A stretch of 6,945 bases of DNA from Geopsychrobacter sp. Lineage in GTDB: Bacteria; Desulfobacterota; Desulfuromonadia; Desulfuromonadales; Geopsychrobacteraceae. Below the pieces are notes generated by a model, which saw nothing but the letters and a program-made list of their open reading frames with translations, made no database searches and was not told the origin of the DNA. Location of the stretch: positions 1 to 6,945 of the forward strand of contig JAKIUS010000085.1 of the NCBI GenBank assembly GCA_021647445.1, given 5' to 3'. The position numbers and the translations under genes were made by a program. The number at the start of each line of letters is the position of its first letter. Position 1 is the first letter of the stretch. This document shows positions 303 through 6,945 of this stretch, in pieces.

Positions 303-1205
303 TTGCGACGTCATCTGCGTGAGCGTGAAGAGGATCGCGATCTTACGCGGGTTATCTGCGAACTGGCGACGGCGAGTCGTTACATTATTAATTCGATTCG
401 AACCGGCGAACTCGGGGTGGCCGGAACCTCGAATCTGTACGGGGAATCCCAGCTTAAACTTGATGTGCTCGCCGATCGAATTATCCGTAAACGCATGACC
501 CATACCGGAGTGATAGCGAGTATCGCTTCTGAGGAGGATGGCGAAATTCAGATCATCGACCCCGATGGGAAATATTCCCTCGCCTTCGATCCTCTGGATG
601 GGTCTTCGCTGGTCGATGTCAATCTGGCGGTAGGAACCATCGTCGGTATCTATAAGGGTGCCGATGTCTTAAGCCCGGGGCGTGAGATGATTGGTGCCCT
701 GTATGTGCTTTACGGCCCGCGTTGTACCCTGGTCTATTCAACCGGCAATGGCACCCATGAATTCGCAATGAACGCCCTGATGGAGTACACCCTGGTTCAA
801 GAAAATATCCAGATTGCCGAACAGGGGAATATCTACGCCCCCGGTGGGACGCGCAACCAGTATACCCCGGGAGTCGAAGCCTTTGTCAGCCACTTAGAAG
901 AGCGGGGCAGTAAGTTGAGATACAGCGGTGGATTCGTGCCGGATATTAACCAGGTCCTGATCAAGGGGCATGGTGTTTTTCTCTATCCACACCTTAAGAA
1001 TCTTCCTCGGGGTAAGTTGCGTCTGCTTTACGAACTGAACCCGATGGCCTTTCTGGTTGAGCAGGCGGGTGGTGCCGCTTCGAACGGTCATCAGCGGATT
1101 CTCGATCTTGTTCCCGAGGGAATTGAGCATCGTGAGCCAGTTTTCATCGGCAGTAAGGCCGATGTTGCCAAGGTTGAAGAGTTGATTCGTGCCCTTGAGT
1201 CCTGA
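303..1205 (+). CDS. fbp: Fructose-1,6-bisphosphatase, class I
   Basis: This enzyme hydrolyses fructose 1,6-bisphosphate to fructose 6-phosphate and phosphate, the committed step of gluconeogenesis in the cytoplasm. Counting from the TTG at 303 (300 residues), the family landmarks are all present: SEED at 76-79 and DPLDGSS at 96-102 (metal and phosphate binding), STGNGTHEF at 146-154, RY at 206-207, and the class I signature GKLRLLYELNPMA at 237-249, with metal ligand E244. One motif differs: the GSMVAD/GSLVAD loop of textbook enzymes reads GGFVPD at 209-214, and the preceding loop is short. The true start is probably upstream. The in-frame codons between the ribosome-binding site at 251-259 and 303 encode a plausible N-terminus (NEPGSTPFQVD) like that I recall in Geobacter relatives, but contain no ATG, GTG or TTG. 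If ATT at 261 is used, the protein has 314 residues. The next gene begins 23 bases downstream, so co-transcription is likely. The family call is very secure; the start is not. Confidence 0.95.
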   Translation: MRRHLREREEDRDLTRVICELATASRYIINSIRTGELGVAGTSNLYGESQLKLDVLADRIIRKRMTHTGVIASIASEEDGEIQIIDPDGKYSLAFDPLDGSSLVDVNLAVGTIVGIYKGADVLSPGREMIGALYVLYGPRCTLVYSTGNGTHEFAMNALMEYTLVQENIQIAEQGNIYAPGGTRNQYTPGVEAFVSHLEERGSKLRYSGGFVPDINQVLIKGHGVFLYPHLKNLPRGKLRLLYELNPMAFLVEQAGGAASNGHQRILDLVPEGIEHREPVFIGSKADVAKVEELIRALES

Positions 1206-1217
1206 GTGAATTCTTGC

Positions 1218-1221
1218 GGAG
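1218..1221 (+). promoter_or_regulatory. Ribosome-binding site selecting the GTG start at 1229
   Basis: GGAG lies 7 bases before GTG 1229. The alternative TTG at 1214 has no Shine-Dalgarno and would overlap this site. Starting at 1229 also gives a cleaner signal peptide, beginning M-K-H-F followed by Leu residues. Confidence 0.6.
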
Positions 1222-1228
1222 TTCTCTT

Positions 1229-2341
1229 GTGAAACATTTTTTGCTGCTTTTACTCATCCTCTGTCCTTCTTTTGCGGAGGCCCAGATTACCCAGCGTGAT
1301 TGGGCTCTGCAATTGATCGACAGCCTTGGTTGGTCTTTTGGCTTGCCAGAGAAACCGACCGATGATGATTATGCGCGCATGCTTGACGGCAACCGAGTCT
1401 ATCGGGTTGAGGCCGAAGAGGCTTATCAGCGTGGTGACCGCGTGGCGGTTATGCAGTTTAAGACCTTCGGTGAGTTTAGCGGTGATGGCTGGCTGAACGG
1501 CATCAAGAATCGGACGCAGGCCCATCTTAAATTTAACCTGCCACATGCCGGTCGCTATAAGGTGAGGGCACGTGTGCGTCTGCGCGAGCATCATCTGTTG
1601 ATCGGCGGACGTGATTTCAGGATGAGCGGCAGTAATCAATTTACCGATGTTGAGGTTGGTTATGTTGAGATGCAGTCAGGAGAGCAGGAGGCCGTTGTCC
1701 AACTGCGGCCGAATGGCAGTATTGATTATATAGAGCTTGAGGCAGAACCCTTTGCGCCGATTCGACCTGCAGGGGGGTGGAACTTCGACGCCGCATTGAC
1801 CCCCGAAGTTGCCGCGCGGACCACGATCCAGTCACTCAATCTGCAAAACCAACTCCCTTTAACAGCGCAGAGTTTAAACCTCGAAGCTGAAAATCTGGTT
1901 CAACCTGCGGGGGTTCGCATCTATCGGGGATCCAATAAAGGGGAGGCGAGCGGTGGTCGTTATGTGCAGGTCGGAGCGGCGCCTGTCGAGCTTAATTTTT
2001 ACGCCGTAAACCTTGCAGACGGGGTGAAGGATCTGGTGCTGCGTGCTGCCAGCGGCAAGGTGCTGAGGGTGAAGTTTGAGGGCTATCTGGAGTCACAGGT
2101 ACGCTTCGATTCTCGTTTTACCGACCGGGTTCTGGGGACCTTCTTTGTCCCGCAGGGTGACATGTCGATCAGGGTTCAATTGCCGGCAGGTGCCTCCGTC
2201 GATCGTTTAGAGCTTCGCTCAAGGCGTGCCGGGCGGCAGGAGATGTTGAAGCTTGTCGGTCTTAAGGATTCCGCAAAGGTGAAGCCGCGTGATTTAAACA
2301 ATCTGTCGGCCCTTATCTATCGTTTAAAGGCTCTGCGTTAA
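1229..2341 (+). CDS. Secreted protein of unknown function with two CBM6/35-like domains
   Basis: The 370-residue protein (GTG start) begins with a signal peptide: Lys2, a Leu-rich core at 4-12, and a likely cleavage after FAEA (residue 18). It is thus predicted to be periplasmic or secreted, with no lipobox and no later membrane helix. Residues 20-57 form a short helical lead-in ending in a GLPEKP...DY motif. Two similar blocks follow. Block 1 spans about 58-172, opening with YRVEAEEA and closing with SIDYIELEAE. Block 2 spans about 216-330, opening with LNLEAENL and closing with SVDRLELRS. An opening EAE strand and a closing (I/V)DxIEL strand about 110 residues later are typical of CBM6/CBM35-type galactose-binding-like beta-sandwiches, so each block may bind a sugar chain or another surface ligand. 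The tail (331-370) is basic and helical. No catalytic domain is visible, so it may act as a binding or assembly protein. It follows fbp by 23 bases. The coding call is secure; the fold is inference. Confidence 0.85.
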   Translation: MKHFLLLLLILCPSFAEAQITQRDWALQLIDSLGWSFGLPEKPTDDDYARMLDGNRVYRVEAEEAYQRGDRVAVMQFKTFGEFSGDGWLNGIKNRTQAHLKFNLPHAGRYKVRARVRLREHHLLIGGRDFRMSGSNQFTDVEVGYVEMQSGEQEAVVQLRPNGSIDYIELEAEPFAPIRPAGGWNFDAALTPEVAARTTIQSLNLQNQLPLTAQSLNLEAENLVQPAGVRIYRGSNKGEASGGRYVQVGAAPVELNFYAVNLADGVKDLVLRAASGKVLRVKFEGYLESQVRFDSRFTDRVLGTFFVPQGDMSIRVQLPAGASVDRLELRSRRAGRQEMLKLVGLKDSAKVKPRDLNNLSALIYRLKALR

Positions 2342-2410: not shown

Positions 2411-4756
2411 GTGAATCTGGTTGGTTTTTGTCTGGTTGGCTATGTTGCAGGGCTGTTGCTGGCTCCGTATTTCGATCTGCCGTTCATTCCGTTGCTTCTT
2501 CTTGCCTGTTTCTCTTTGCTGCTCCTCTTTTTCAAGCGTAATTCGCGCATCGCTTGTTATCTTCTGTTGCTTTTCTGCTTGCTGATCGGTCTGTTGCGTG
2601 ATGAGGCATTATTCTCTTCCCACAACAACCCGCTCGACCCCTTTGTTGGTACGAAATTGGTGAGAATCTTGGGGCAGGTTCTTGCGAGCCATGAACGTCC
2701 CCGAGGCGGTGTCAGTATCGATCTTGCGGTGGAGCGTCTCGGTCCCGATTTGCATGCCAGAGGGTACGGCCAACGCCTGCGGTTGTATGTCGGGCAGGCG
2801 ACGGTGGTTCCCGTGGTCGGGAGTTCGGTGATTTTTGCGAGTCGTATCCGTCGCCTGAGTAGTTTTGGCATTCCCGGGGAGTTTGACTATGTCCGACATC
2901 TCTCCTATCGGGGGATACAACATTCCGCTTATCTGTCGCACTCAAGGAGTCTGGCGGTTTTTGCCCCGCCCGAGGGGGAATATGCGACCTGGATTGATCT
3001 TGTCCGTCGCGCTGGATTGCGGATTCTGGATCAGGGACTTTCGCCCGAACGGGCACTATTATTGAAGGGATTGTTGCTTGGCGAAAAGAGTGCCATGCCG
3101 CAAGAACTGCGCCAAACACTCGCAAATGGCGGTATTGCACATCTGTTTGCAATCTCTGGACTTCATCTCGGTCTGCTTGCTTTTCTGCTTTATTGCCTGT
3201 TTAAATTTCTTTATGGCCGCTCGAGCCGACTGCTACTCTGGCAGCCACCGCGTCGGGTTTTATGGTTTCTGATTCTGCCGTTGTTATTTCTCTATCTGCT
3301 GTTAACTGGCGATGCCTTGTCGACCCGTCGTGCCTTTTATGCCCTGTTGGTTCCGGTGGTGCTTTCTCTTCTTCGGCGTCGCGTTGACCCGTTGCACCTG
3401 CTATTCGGGCTGGCTTTTCTGTTTTTGTTGTTTGAGCCCCTGGCATTGTGGCAACCGTCGATGCAACTCTCTTTCAGTGGTGTTTTGGGTATTTTGTTGT
3501 GGCAGCAGCCCGTACAGCGGCTGTTGTCTTCCTGCCCAGGGTTTGTGCGTTATCCGCTTATGTTGTTTGCGATCAGTCTGGCTGCCTTTCTTTCAACCTT
3601 GCCGTTTGTCATTATGTCTTTTCACCCAATCGCACCTGCCGGACTGCTTGCGAATTTGTTTGCAATCCCATTGGTCAGCTTTGTCGCCCTGCCGACAGGT
3701 CTCTTCGGTTTGCTGCTCAGTAGCTTTTGGGCAAGTGCTGGTGCGTTGTTGCTGGGTTTTTCTGCAACGCTGTTACAATGGGTGGTTCGTTTTTCCAGCT
3801 GGATCAATGATCTGCCCGCACTCTCCGCACAGCGTTTATTTTTGACCCTGCCTGAGAATCTCGCCCTTTTGTTGTTCTGTTTCTCTCTTCTTATCGGCTG
3901 GCGATTTCGAAGAGGGTTATGGTTGCTGATTCCTGCGGTTTGTCTTATGGGTATTAGCCCACGGGATAATACGACTGTGGAATTGATCATGTTCAGTGTC
4001 GGGCAAGGGGAGTCGATGCTGTTGCGGGTCAACGGTGAGAATTTTCTTGTTGATGGTGGCGGTTTGCGCAGTAAGAGTTTTGATGTTGGAGAACGGTTGC
4101 TGGCTCCTGCCCTCGGTCGCCTGGGGGTGGATAAACTGGCTGCCGTGCTTCTGACGCATAACCATCCAGACCATAGTGGTGGTCTGGCTTATATTGTCGA
4201 GCATTTTAAGGTGCGACAGTTCTGGAGCGGAGTCCCTTTGCAACGGCTTGCTCCTAACCTGCGTTCTATACTGCAGGAGAAAGAAGTGGAGTTGCATGAA
4301 TTTAAACAAAAGGGTTGGCATCGCGAACAGATTGGTCAGCGAACCTCGGTGTCTTTGTATATTGCCCAAGGCCTGAGGGGAGAGAATAATCGTTCCCTCT
4401 GCCTTTACCTTACAACGCCTGCAGGAGGAATCCTCTTGACCGGGGACCTTGAGGCTCAGGGTGTCTCGGCCTTATTGCAGAGTGCGATTCCCGGACCGGT
4501 CGTATTATTGAAGGCTCCTCACCATGGCAGTGCAGGGTCGAAGCCTAGGCAGCTCGTTGCGCAACTTGGGCCCGAGTTGATTCTCGCCTCCGTAGGGTAT
4601 GACAATCCTTATCATTTTCCTTCGTCTCGGTTGCTGGATCAAGCGGCAAAGGATAGTATAAGAGTTTGGCGGACTGATCTTGATGGAACGGTTCAGGTGC
4701 GTGTTGAGGGCAAAAAGTGGCAGGTTCGTCATTGGTCAAAAGGGCTTTTCCGTTGA
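2411..4756 (+). CDS. comEC: DNA internalization-related competence protein ComEC/Rec2
   Basis: ComEC is the inner-membrane channel that carries single-stranded DNA into the cytoplasm during natural transformation. The 781-residue protein has the complete family layout. N-terminal membrane helices (about 7-62) precede a soluble OB-fold-like DUF4131 region (about 80-185). The competence membrane domain (about 205-515) follows, with the diagnostic LLLGEKS (221-227) and HLFAISGLH (244-252) motifs and roughly ten hydrophobic helices. A metallo-beta-lactamase-like domain occupies about 522-770. Its motifs are VGQGES (530-535), FLVDGG (545-550), THNHPDHSGG (582-591), LLTGDLE (675-681), APHHGS (702-707) and YHFPS (734-738). 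The metal-binding motif is HxHxDH, where many ComEC proteins have HxDxDH; this keeps all ligands and looks functional as a nuclease or phosphodiesterase-type site. Length is normal and the frame is unbroken. No comEA, pilus or other competence genes are in the window, so active transformation cannot be inferred from context. Confidence 0.95.
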   Translation: MNLVGFCLVGYVAGLLLAPYFDLPFIPLLLLACFSLLLLFFKRNSRIACYLLLLFCLLIGLLRDEALFSSHNNPLDPFVGTKLVRILGQVLASHERPRGGVSIDLAVERLGPDLHARGYGQRLRLYVGQATVVPVVGSSVIFASRIRRLSSFGIPGEFDYVRHLSYRGIQHSAYLSHSRSLAVFAPPEGEYATWIDLVRRAGLRILDQGLSPERALLLKGLLLGEKSAMPQELRQTLANGGIAHLFAISGLHLGLLAFLLYCLFKFLYGRSSRLLLWQPPRRVLWFLILPLLFLYLLLTGDALSTRRAFYALLVPVVLSLLRRRVDPLHLLFGLAFLFLLFEPLALWQPSMQLSFSGVLGILLWQQPVQRLLSSCPGFVRYPLMLFAISLAAFLSTLPFVIMSFHPIAPAGLLANLFAIPLVSFVALPTGLFGLLLSSFWASAGALLLGFSATLLQWVVRFSSWINDLPALSAQRLFLTLPENLALLLFCFSLLIGWRFRRGLWLLIPAVCLMGISPRDNTTVELIMFSVGQGESMLLRVNGENFLVDGGGLRSKSFDVGERLLAPALGRLGVDKLAAVLLTHNHPDHSGGLAYIVEHFKVRQFWSGVPLQRLAPNLRSILQEKEVELHEFKQKGWHREQIGQRTSVSLYIAQGLRGENNRSLCLYLTTPAGGILLTGDLEAQGVSALLQSAIPGPVVLLKAPHHGSAGSKPRQLVAQLGPELILASVGYDNPYHFPSSRLLDQAAKDSIRVWRTDLDGTVQVRVEGKKWQVRHWSKGLFR

Positions 4757-4810: not shown

Positions 4811-6184
4811 ATGGACCAGGCCAGGATACTCGTTGTTGATGATGAACTTTTCTTTCGTCAGCTTTACCACGACCTTCTCAGCGAGTGTGGTCATAGGGTT
4901 GAAGTTTATGACTCCGGTGATGATGCCATAGCGCGTTTGGCCGGCGGCGGCATCGATCTGGTGTTGACCGATATGGTGATGCCCGGTCGTTGTGGTCTCG
5001 AAGTGTTGCGCGCCGCGCGTGGCCTGGTCGACCCTCCAGAGGTCATTCTGGTGACCGGACATGCCAGTCTTGAATCGGCAATTCATGCCCTTAAGAACGG
5101 TGCTCGCGATTATCTTGTGAAGCCGTTTAATCCCGAAGAACTTAAACATCTCGTTAAAATCTGTCTTGAACAACGTCGTTTGTTAAATGAAAACGTACAG
5201 TTGCGTCAGCAGATTCATCTTTTCCAAAATGGCCAGTCACTCTCTTCACTTATCGAACTCGATCGCTTATTGCCACGTTCATTGGAGATTTTCCAACGTG
5301 AACTGGGTGGCGGCTATGCCTTCAGTGTCCTGCTGAGTGACGAGAATGAATATTCAATACAAGAAGCCATCGGGATTGAGCGCAGTCAGGCCGAAAATCT
5401 CTTACCGCTGTTACCCCGGCTCCTTGACGATGTAACCGGTCTTAAGTGTTTATCTTCTGATCAGTTGCGGCAGTTTGCGCAGGAGAACTACAAATTTGAT
5501 TCTCTCTGTGTGCTGCCTCTCTACAATGAAGGGGAATTAAAGGGCGGGCTGGTTTTCGGCGATGGGCCGCTGGCGATGATGAATGAAACCTTCCCTAAAG
5601 AACGCCTGCATTATCTGGCTGAGCAGGTTGCGCTCGGCTTTGAAAATTCCAGTCGCTATCAGGATGCACAGGACCTGATGTACACCGATGATCTCACCGG
5701 TCTCTATAATTATCGCTATATGCAAATTGCCTTGAATCAGGAGTCGCGTCGTTCCCAACGCTATGGATTGAAATTTTCATTGATCTTCCTCGATCTCGAC
5801 CGCTTCAAGGGGATAAATGATCGCCACGGGCATCTAGCTGGAAGTGCGGCCCTGCAGGAGGTCTCGCGACTGCTGCGTGGTTGTGTGCGCGAAGTCGATA
5901 CCCTGTTTCGTTTTGGCGGTGATGAGTTCACCGCGCTGCTGGTTGAAACCGATGCGACGGCGGCGCGAGTGGTTGCGGAACGAATTCGTAAGAGCATTGC
6001 CGATCATTCCTTCTTGAAGGACCACGAGCAACCCTGTCGCTTGACAACCACTGTCGGATTTTCAACCTTTCCTTCTGATGCTCTGGACGCAACCGAGTTG
6101 CTTGAACTTGCCGATCGTGCCATGTATGACGGCAAGCGTGTGCGTAATGTTATTCGTGGCGTTGAGGAGCTTGGCCACGAATGA
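4811..6184 (+). CDS. Receiver-GAF-like-GGDEF response regulator; candidate Hypr-type cGAMP synthase
   Basis: The 457-residue cytoplasmic protein has three parts. Residues 5-118 are a receiver domain resembling NtrC-type receivers, with acidic pocket D10-D11, phospho-acceptor D54 (LTDMVMPG), T82 and K104 (VKPF), so it should be phosphorylated by a histidine kinase that is not in the window. A helical linker (118-140) leads to a GAF-like region (about 145-280, with SLCVLPLYNEGELKGGLVFG at 231-250). The GGDEF domain spans about 290-450: DDLTGLYN (293-300), FLDLDRFKGINDRHGH (326-341), inhibitory RxxD (R360-D363), and GGDEF at 369-373. All catalytic residues are intact. The notable change is HGHLAGS: Ser345 (AGT at 5843) replaces the Asp that contacts the guanine base in ordinary diguanylate cyclases. 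From published work, this Ser marks Hypr enzymes such as GacA (GSU1658) of Geobacter sulfurreducens, also a response regulator, which make 3',3'-cGAMP as well as c-di-GMP. The ATG has CGGGAG nine bases upstream. The GGDEF assignment is certain; cGAMP production is strong inference. Confidence 0.93.
   Translation: MDQARILVVDDELFFRQLYHDLLSECGHRVEVYDSGDDAIARLAGGGIDLVLTDMVMPGRCGLEVLRAARGLVDPPEVILVTGHASLESAIHALKNGARDYLVKPFNPEELKHLVKICLEQRRLLNENVQLRQQIHLFQNGQSLSSLIELDRLLPRSLEIFQRELGGGYAFSVLLSDENEYSIQEAIGIERSQAENLLPLLPRLLDDVTGLKCLSSDQLRQFAQENYKFDSLCVLPLYNEGELKGGLVFGDGPLAMMNETFPKERLHYLAEQVALGFENSSRYQDAQDLMYTDDLTGLYNYRYMQIALNQESRRSQRYGLKFSLIFLDLDRFKGINDRHGHLAGSAALQEVSRLLRGCVREVDTLFRFGGDEFTALLVETDATAARVVAERIRKSIADHSFLKDHEQPCRLTTTVGFSTFPSDALDATELLELADRAMYDGKRVRNVIRGVEELGHE
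6164..6184 (+). promoter_or_regulatory. ATGA stop/start overlap with upstream ribosome-binding site
   Basis: The GGDEF gene's TGA (6182-6184) overlaps the next gene's ATG (6181-6183). GAGGAG at 6164-6169, inside the GGDEF coding end, lies 11 bases before that ATG. This arrangement normally means translational coupling, with matched production of the two proteins. Confidence 0.7.
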
Positions 6185-6945
6185 AATTGTTGTTGCAGTT
6201 TTGTCTCCTGGCCCTGTTGCTCGGACTGACTCTCCCTTGTGTCGCTGACTCTTCCTTAGTTGATCATTATCGCAAGGCTCTCGACGCCGATCCGCAAAAT
6301 CCGACTTTACGTTATCATCTTGGCGTCGCCTTGTTGAATCAAGGTGAAAATAAACAAGCGATTAAAGCCTTTCGCAGGGCCTATCCGACGTTGTCTGATG
6401 ATGCCGAAATTAACTTTAATCTCGCCCTCGCCTATAGCCGGATATCTGATCCAGACAGTGCATTGATTTATCTTGATCAAGCCGCAGCAGAGACCGTCCC
6501 TCAAACCGATGTTTACCCCCTTAATACGATCTATTTCAATCTGGTTATTCTGTATGAGCAGCAGGGTCGGCTTGATGATGCGGTGGTCTTGCTGAAGCGA
6601 CTCCTGCGTGAAAACCCGACTTCCCTCGATTCTCTGAGAATGCTGGCCGAATTTCAGTTGCGGTTAGGACGGGTTGATGAAGCGACATTGCTGTTCAGTG
6701 ATTATCTTAAGCGGGCCCCGACCGATTCCGAGATGCGCGAATATATTTTTGCCAGCCTGTTTAATCGCGGTCTTAAAGCCTACGAGAATAAAGAATTTAA
6801 GCGGGCCACAATCGAGTTTAAGCGCGTTTTGCAGTTTAGGCCTGAGAGCAGTCTTGTTTTGTATTATCTCAGTTTGCTCGATTATCAGCAGCAGAATTTT
6901 GAACGGATTGCCGAACGTTTGCCCCAACTGTATGAGCGCCTCAAT
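6181..6945 (+). CDS. Exported tetratricopeptide-repeat protein, 3' end outside the window
   Basis: The frame is open from ATG 6181 to the window edge (255 residues, no stop). The N-terminus is a signal peptide: Lys2, a Leu-rich core at 9-18, then LPCVA with likely cleavage after Ala22. The Cys at 20 follows Pro, so it is a poor lipobox, and a lipoprotein is unlikely. The remainder is helical with recurring TPR features: about 43-75 (YHLGVALLNQGENKQAIKAF), 76-108 (NFNLALAYSRISDPDSALIY), 115-147 (IYFNLVILYEQQGRLDDAVV), 149-181 (LAEFQLRLGRVDEATLLF), 191-224 (FNRGLKAYENKEFKRATIEF), and a partial repeat from about 225. TPR arrays bind partner proteins; this one would act in the periplasm. The specific partner and role are unknown. 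The ATGA overlap with the cyclic-dinucleotide gene suggests shared expression. It is not listed as a complete gene only because the window ends; nothing suggests it is broken. Confidence 0.85.
   Translation, partial: MKLLLQFCLLALLLGLTLPCVADSSLVDHYRKALDADPQNPTLRYHLGVALLNQGENKQAIKAFRRAYPTLSDDAEINFNLALAYSRISDPDSALIYLDQAAAETVPQTDVYPLNTIYFNLVILYEQQGRLDDAVVLLKRLLRENPTSLDSLRMLAEFQLRLGRVDEATLLFSDYLKRAPTDSEMREYIFASLFNRGLKAYENKEFKRATIEFKRVLQFRPESSLVLYYLSLLDYQQQNFERIAERLPQLYERLN

What the first reader, a model, noticed from the sequence alone, without database searches (positions are those of the whole stretch)
5843..5845. GGDEF enzyme with Asp-to-Ser at the guanine-contact position: predicted cGAMP synthase
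Seen in the sequence: HGHLAGS ends in Ser345 (AGT), where ordinary diguanylate cyclases have HGHxxGD, while the GGDEF motif, N336, D328 and the RxxD site are intact. Known: the same Ser substitution defines Hypr GGDEF enzymes, first shown for GacA (GSU1658) of Geobacter, which produce 3',3'-cGAMP that acts through GEMM-Ib riboswitches on genes for extracellular metal respiration. Inference: this organism has a kinase-controlled cGAMP pathway, so annotating this gene as a plain diguanylate cyclase would be misleading.
Basis: partly seen in the sequence, partly recalled or inferred. Interest (0 to 1): 0.85.

Follow-up and report, generated by a model that had tools for sequence, protein, structure and literature searches.

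The report
GacA-type cGAMP synthase gene
This contig from a relative of Geobacter carries the counterpart of a known Geobacter enzyme, GacA, with the same serine at its base-reading position, so it is predicted to make the signal molecule cGAMP and likely helps switch on electron-transfer genes; it is a new member of a known kind, kept in nearly all of the relatives examined.

The parts
4811..6184 (+). gacA-like gene: receiver domain, middle sensor-like region, GGDEF domain (457 aa)
4826..5155 (+). receiver domain (residues 6-115)
   Evidence: Pfam PF00072, 88.3 bits
4970..4972 (+). Asp54, predicted phospho-acceptor; Asp in 71 of 72 readable orthologue sequences, Glu in 1
5681..6139 (+). GGDEF domain (residues 291-443)
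5711..5713 (+). Tyr301 at the cross-dimer position (GmGacA Tyr304; Arg in most diguanylate cyclases)
   Evidence: role from PMC6456294 section 13
5816..5818 (+). Asn336, base-contacting Asn (GmGacA Asn339)
   Evidence: role from PMC6456294 section 12
5843..5845 (+). Ser345 (AGT), position of PleD Asp344 / GmGacA Ser348
5888..5899 (+). R360xxD363 inhibitory-site motif
5915..5929 (+). GGDEF motif, residues 369-373
5987..5989 (+). Arg393, in VAERIR, aligned with the PleD inhibitory-site Arg; taken as the counterpart of GsGacA R393
   Evidence: role from PMC6456294 passages; the equivalence is inferred from the alignment
2411..4756 (+). comEC-like gene; next upstream of gacA among the genes sought in 22 of 22 loci
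6181..6945 (+). TPR protein gene, start overlaps the gacA stop (ATGA), runs off the contig
303..1205 (+). fructose-1,6-bisphosphatase gene (neighbour, not part of the system)
1214..2341 (+). conserved gene without Pfam match (neighbour)

Best explanation
The window encodes a GacA-type Hypr GGDEF protein, which is predicted to make mainly 3',3'-cGAMP from ATP plus GTP and would likely act through A20-type GEMM-I riboswitches found elsewhere in the same genome. Shown by the calls: the GacA sequence signatures, the shared gene order, the tree position and the riboswitches. [quoted passage not shown] the shorter Asp371 of GGDEF holds the metal at the matching distance; Tyr301 stacks on the base in the other half-site and favours the mixed product; c-di-GMP in the inhibitory site (Arg360, Asp363, Arg393) holds the enzyme down. 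cGAMP would then close the aptamer and prevent a terminator that shares the aptamer's 3' strand (locus L002), so the downstream genes would be switched on: by gene order with a congener, a ferredoxin/flavin oxidoreductase and multihaem cytochrome cluster, and in two other cases large MalT-like regulators.
Against: No product or binding was measured. Support for the GacA branch is moderate (94/78; bootstrap not settled), and Ser occurs in homologues outside it: 10 of 12 distant rows in the tree have Ser and do not group with GacA, so Ser is wider than GacA. Foldseek ranks PleD chains above 6D9M (14th). GacA makes mixtures in vitro (PMC6456294 section 8). Own aptamers: 0 of 4 with the ACTAAA core, and the omcST aptamer is reported to sense both messengers. 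Congener G001 (99% complete) has GacA but a single GEMM-I, with G20; five other genomes have GacA and none over the cut-off. The oxidoreductase was not found in this genome: the contig ends 137 bases after the aptamer and the genome is 71% complete. The commonest cross-dimer residue in relatives is His (41 of 75), which is not among the residues named in PMC6456294 section 13.
Confidence: 0.84

Rival explanations
1. A promiscuous enzyme whose main cellular product is c-di-GMP, with cGAMP a minor product.
For: Hypr enzymes make mixtures; two with Arg at the cross-dimer site make more c-di-GMP (PMC6456294 section 13). The own A20 aptamers could be dual sensors (core AGCAAA).
Against: This protein has Tyr301, and 0 of 75 orthologue sequences have Arg there. 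The same genome has 11 Asp-type GGDEF domains that could serve c-di-GMP, so an invariant Ser in GacA suggests a different product.
Confidence: 0.1
2. The pathway is switched by a histidine kinase through Asp54.
For: The receiver domain is intact (88.3 bits); Asp54 is kept in 71 of 72 readable sequences and Lys104 in 72 of 73, which argues for some use of the site.
Against: None of the five window genes searched is a kinase; a kinase elsewhere was not sought. GsGacA D52A makes wild-type cGAMP levels and rescues Fe(III) oxide reduction, while the inhibitory site controls output (PMC6456294 passages). Phosphorylation might instead turn the enzyme down.
Confidence: 0.25
3. A catalytically dead GGDEF that only binds nucleotides.
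For: Ser at this site inactivated four of five canonical enzymes when engineered (PMC6456294 section 12).
Against: Those four had GGEEF; this one has GGDEF, the combination that works in GacA, and the motif is kept in 74 of 74 readable relatives.
Confidence: 0.03

Closest known systems
GacA (GSU1658 of Geobacter sulfurreducens; Gmet_1914 structure 6D9M)
   Same: Receiver-GGDEF design, Ser at the guanine-contact site, GGDEF motif, Asn, cross-dimer Tyr, inhibitory-site residues; comEC upstream as in Geobacter-side genome G161.
   Different: 50% identity over the GGDEF domain of 6D9M, 43% over 446 residues to the G161 copy; in the five congeners examined a TPR gene and a class III nucleotide cyclase gene sit downstream of gacA, before hisS where the contig reaches it. 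GSU1658 itself was not in hand.
GSU1937-type second Hypr (HAMP membrane protein with GGDDF)
   Same: A protein of that design is also in this genome (L299 1429-2760, minus strand): HAMP, Ser at the selectivity site, GGDDY.
   Different: It is not the window protein; its equivalent of Asn336 is Gly. Identity to GSU1937 itself was not measured.
Bd0367 of Bdellovibrio bacteriovorus
   Same: Hypr GGDEF with Ser (S214) reported to make cGAMP in vivo (PMC9140294 passages).
   Different: Different pathway (gliding exit from prey); sequence not compared here.
PleD (canonical diguanylate cyclase, receiver-GGDEF)
   Same: Overall design and fold.
   Different: Asp344, GGEEF and Arg at the cross-dimer site.

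Membership tests
Hypr GGDEF | Ser or Thr in place of the guanine-contact Asp | tested here: met
   Ser345
Hypr GGDEF | GGDE[F/Y], Asp not Glu as third motif residue (Goldilocks match) | tested here: met
   GGDEF 369-373; rule from PMC6456294 section 12
Hypr GGDEF | base-contacting Asn kept | tested here: met
   Asn336; also 75 of 75 relatives
Hypr GGDEF | cross-dimer residue not Arg (Tyr, Ser, Ala or Gln in cGAMP-dominant enzymes) | tested here: met
   Tyr301; rule from PMC6456294 section 13
Hypr GGDEF | makes 3',3'-cGAMP from ATP and GTP | not testable with these tools
   needs the purified enzyme
GacA orthologue | groups with GacA and not with canonical GGDEFs | tested here: met
   one side of a branch, 94/78, bootstrap not settled
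GacA orthologue | gene order comEC-gacA-hisS | tested here: met
   comEC in the window; in relatives comEC upstream 22 of 22, hisS downstream 21 of 22 loci incl. Geobacter-side G161. In the window itself the hisS side lies beyond the contig end
GEMM-Ib (cGAMP) riboswitch regulon | GEMM-I aptamers with A at nucleotide 20 | tested here: met
   3 of 4 in this genome
GEMM-Ib (cGAMP) riboswitch regulon | ACTAAA core, seen in 19 of 25 Geobacter-side A20 hits | tested here: not met
   0 of 4 in this genome; present in congeners G004, G006, G007. Whether this core is needed for cGAMP binding is not known to me, so it is not treated as defining
GEMM-Ib (cGAMP) riboswitch regulon | selective binding of cGAMP | not testable with these tools
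   needs in-line probing
canonical diguanylate cyclase | Asp at the guanine-contact site | tested here: not met
   Ser345

The most novel reading that the evidence does not exclude
Across this order cGAMP made by GacA is a conserved core signal that in several lineages works without any GEMM-I riboswitch, so an undiscovered cGAMP receptor exists there; and in the window's organism two A20 riboswitches pass the signal to large MalT/SARP-like regulators, turning a direct riboswitch regulon into a transcription cascade, with a class III nucleotide cyclase encoded in the gacA operon linking cGAMP to a cyclic mononucleotide signal.
Probability: 0.35. Interest if true: 0.62.

Novelty: new member of a known kind. 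Interest (0 to 1): 0.37.

Why it matters
NCBIfam labels this protein a plain diguanylate cyclase (TIGR00254 over its cut-off; the PleD model far under its own), which would send a reader to the wrong messenger. The comparison shows that the Hypr signature is kept in GacA of all 74 orthologue-bearing relatives examined, in an order other than the one that holds the Geobacter-side genomes. Genomes that keep GacA but show no GEMM-I riboswitch give a direct way to look for missing cGAMP receptors.

Tried and rejected
Plain diguanylate cyclase: rejected, the selectivity residue is Ser, not Asp. Misalignment of the Ser: rejected in three alignments. Riboswitch inside the window: none at Rfam's gathering scores. 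I looked at the Ser position in 17 of those 80 loci: Ser in 15, Gly in 1 (L158), Asp in 1 (L174). The oxidoreductase behind L002 was not found in this genome, which the contig end may explain. A terminator after aptamer L003 was not listed by the simple scan but folds at -15.7 kcal/mol followed by seven T; none was listed after L004. A kinase partner elsewhere in the genome and cGAMP-degrading enzymes were not sought. Papers: Hallberg 2016 (the Hypr discovery) is not held; what I say of it comes from other papers. Seen: PMC6456294 passages and sections 8, 12, 13; PMC8835794 passages and section 7; PMC9140294 passages; all other papers only as search listings. A four-word search lists first the papers with most words, and none holds all of Hypr, GGDEF, cGAMP and Desulfuromonadales; none holds cyclic GMP-AMP, riboswitch and Desulfuromonas together. 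This does not cover subscription journals.

Full report
Observation. The ORF at 4811-6184 encodes 457 residues; codon 345 at 5843-5845 is AGT, Ser, in RHGHLAGSAAL. GGDEF 369-373, Asn336, Asp328, R360xxD363 and Arg393 are present. Pfam finds a receiver domain (6-115) and a GGDEF domain (291-443); the middle has no Pfam match but is modelled as a mixed alpha-beta domain between two long helices (mean pLDDT of the whole model 87.9, pTM 0.52). I read it as a sensor-like, perhaps GAF-like, domain; that is inference.

Conservation. The full protein was sought in 79 genomes, this one included. I took as orthologues the hits of 277 bits or more; everything at or under 160 bits was dropped as other GGDEF proteins. 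That leaves 75 sequences from 74 of 78 relatives (G042 has two; G008, G060, G063, G074 have none). Ser is kept in 75 of 75, Asn in 75 of 75, GGDEF in 74 of 74 readable, RxxD in 74 of 74 readable, the second inhibitory Arg in 73 of 74 (Leu once, in L122). The cross-dimer residue is His 41, Tyr 28, Gln 3, Ser 1, Asn 1, Val 1 and never Arg; His is not among the residues discussed in PMC6456294 section 13. The receiver Asp is kept in 71 of 72 readable (Glu once). With the 6D9M domain as query, 211 of 277 genomes of the class match at E 1e-50; Ser was not checked in those beyond the above.

Gene order. Eight neighbouring genes were sought in 22 loci (20 relatives, G004 and Geobacter-side G161). comEC is the next of them upstream of gacA in 22 and hisS lies downstream in 21; in the other (G001) the contig ends first. 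In 8 of 22 a TPR gene and a class III nucleotide cyclase follow gacA, before hisS where the contig reaches it: five congeners (G001, G004-G007) and G055, G062, G067; G053 has the TPR alone, G071 a 60-residue cyclase-like stretch. The G004 cyclase has HAMP and a Guanylate_cyc domain. In the window the TPR start overlaps the gacA stop (ATGA) and the contig ends inside that gene; a cyclase of the same kind begins at base 9 of contig C36 of this genome (77%), which fits a continuation but does not prove it.

The pathway around it. The second Ser protein (L299 1429-2760, minus) has HAMP, GGDDY and Gly for Asn; this is the design described for GSU1937, the second cGAMP synthase of G. sulfurreducens (PMC8835794, section 7 read). 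In 30 of 30 sequences checked (this one and 29 relatives, the best hits) Ser and GGDD[Y/F] are kept. RF01051 finds four GEMM-I aptamers. Taking the 11th base of each hit as nucleotide 20 (Vc2 numbering recalled; no indel assumed before it) gives A in L002, L003, L004 and G in L001. In the 7 congeners with hits 20 of 43 have A. In Geobacter-side G161 and G157 it is A in 17 of 19 and 8 of 9, among them one before a pilM gene (PF11104) and tandem pairs; G. sulfurreducens is reported to have tandem GEMM-Ib aptamers and a pilMNOP target (PMC6456294, section 8). This supports the reading of the position. In a tested aptamer A20G turns cGAMP selectivity into c-di-GMP selectivity (PMC6456294 passages).

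Targets. L002 shares its upstream gene, a radical-SAM/lysine-2,3-aminomutase-like gene, with congener loci L128 and L141 (78-79%), where a closely similar A20 aptamer precedes a ferredoxin/flavin oxidoreductase. L130 and L134 have aptamer and oxidoreductase without that upstream gene in the fetched stretch. Behind L128 in G006 follow an ankyrin/Sel1 protein, a protein without Pfam match and three proteins with cytochrome c7/c3-type matches. After L002 a terminator hairpin reuses the last ten bases of the aptamer, so ligand binding would prevent termination: a predicted ON switch. L003 and L004 precede large ATPases resembling MalT in their N-terminal half (128 and 155 bits, under the curated cut-off of 537); the complete one carries a BTAD domain over its cut-off and a Trans_reg_C match just under it, the other runs off its contig. 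A terminator was seen after L003 but not after L004.

Against the reading. The A20 aptamers here carry AGCAAA, while 19 of the 25 A-type Geobacter-side hits carry ACTAAA, 5 a near form and 1 AGCAAA, and the omcST aptamer is reported to sense both messengers, so the ligands of L002-L004 are not settled. G001 keeps GacA with only one GEMM-I, of G20 type. Of 79 genomes 72 have a GEMM-I hit. Of the 7 without, five have Ser-type GacA (G022, G040, G045, G047, G049) and two lack GacA (G008, G060). With laxer filters none of the 7 has a hit over the cut-off; two weak sub-threshold hits (E 0.09 and 0.96) appear in G049 and G047, and four of 14 control genomes also give such weak hits. Fragmented genomes can hide riboswitches: G040 is 84% complete, the other four GacA-bearing ones are listed as 100%. 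Taken at face value this means other cGAMP receptors.

Control. The receiver domain is intact, but the published GacA does not need its phospho-acceptor Asp for cGAMP, whereas its inhibitory site matters 30-fold (PMC6456294 passages).

Novelty. The enzyme is a new member of a known kind. The parts that go beyond what I saw in print are the invariance over the relatives examined, the genomes without GEMM-I, the MalT/SARP-like targets and the class III cyclase neighbour; each is a lead, not a proof.

Noticed in passing
L297:3178-4665 (G004) and contig C36:9-1166 of this genome (L365): A class III nucleotide cyclase (with HAMP in G004) follows gacA-TPR in 8 of 22 loci examined; two second-messenger synthases may share one operon.
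   Followed up: partly
L299:1429-2760 (minus): Second Ser-bearing GGDEF of this genome, HAMP-GGDDY, GSU1937-like design; its Asn335 equivalent is Gly, and Gly, Ser or Asn in the 29 relatives aligned, so base contacts may differ from GacA.
   Followed up: partly
G022, G040, G045, G047, G049: GacA with Ser but no GEMM-I riboswitch over the cut-off, hinting at other cGAMP receptors.
   Followed up: partly
L124:41-3379 (minus), L125:665-3412: Two A20 GEMM-I aptamers precede large MalT-like ATPases, the complete one with a BTAD domain and a sub-threshold DNA-binding match.
   Followed up: partly
L001:1500-1580: The fourth GEMM-I of this genome scores best as the Rfam variant c-di-GMP-I-GGC (RF03167) and precedes a protein with only sub-threshold fibronectin-III-like matches.
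   Followed up: no
L129, L135, L138, L142, L144, L146, L302, L308: Congeners hold a further GEMM-I-like variant with a GCC-type core and CGGAAAG or a near form instead of CGCAAAG; ligand unknown to me.
   Followed up: no
L158:3170-4516 (Deferrisomatales MAG): A full-length homologue has Gly at the selectivity position (GHLTGGK), neither Asp nor Ser.
   Followed up: no
G008: A congener (89% complete) without a gacA hit and without GEMM-I still has the second Ser-type GGDEF (66%).
   Followed up: no
1214-2341: Gene next to fbp/comEC, found by tblastn in 12 of the 22 neighbourhoods, no Pfam match.
   Followed up: no
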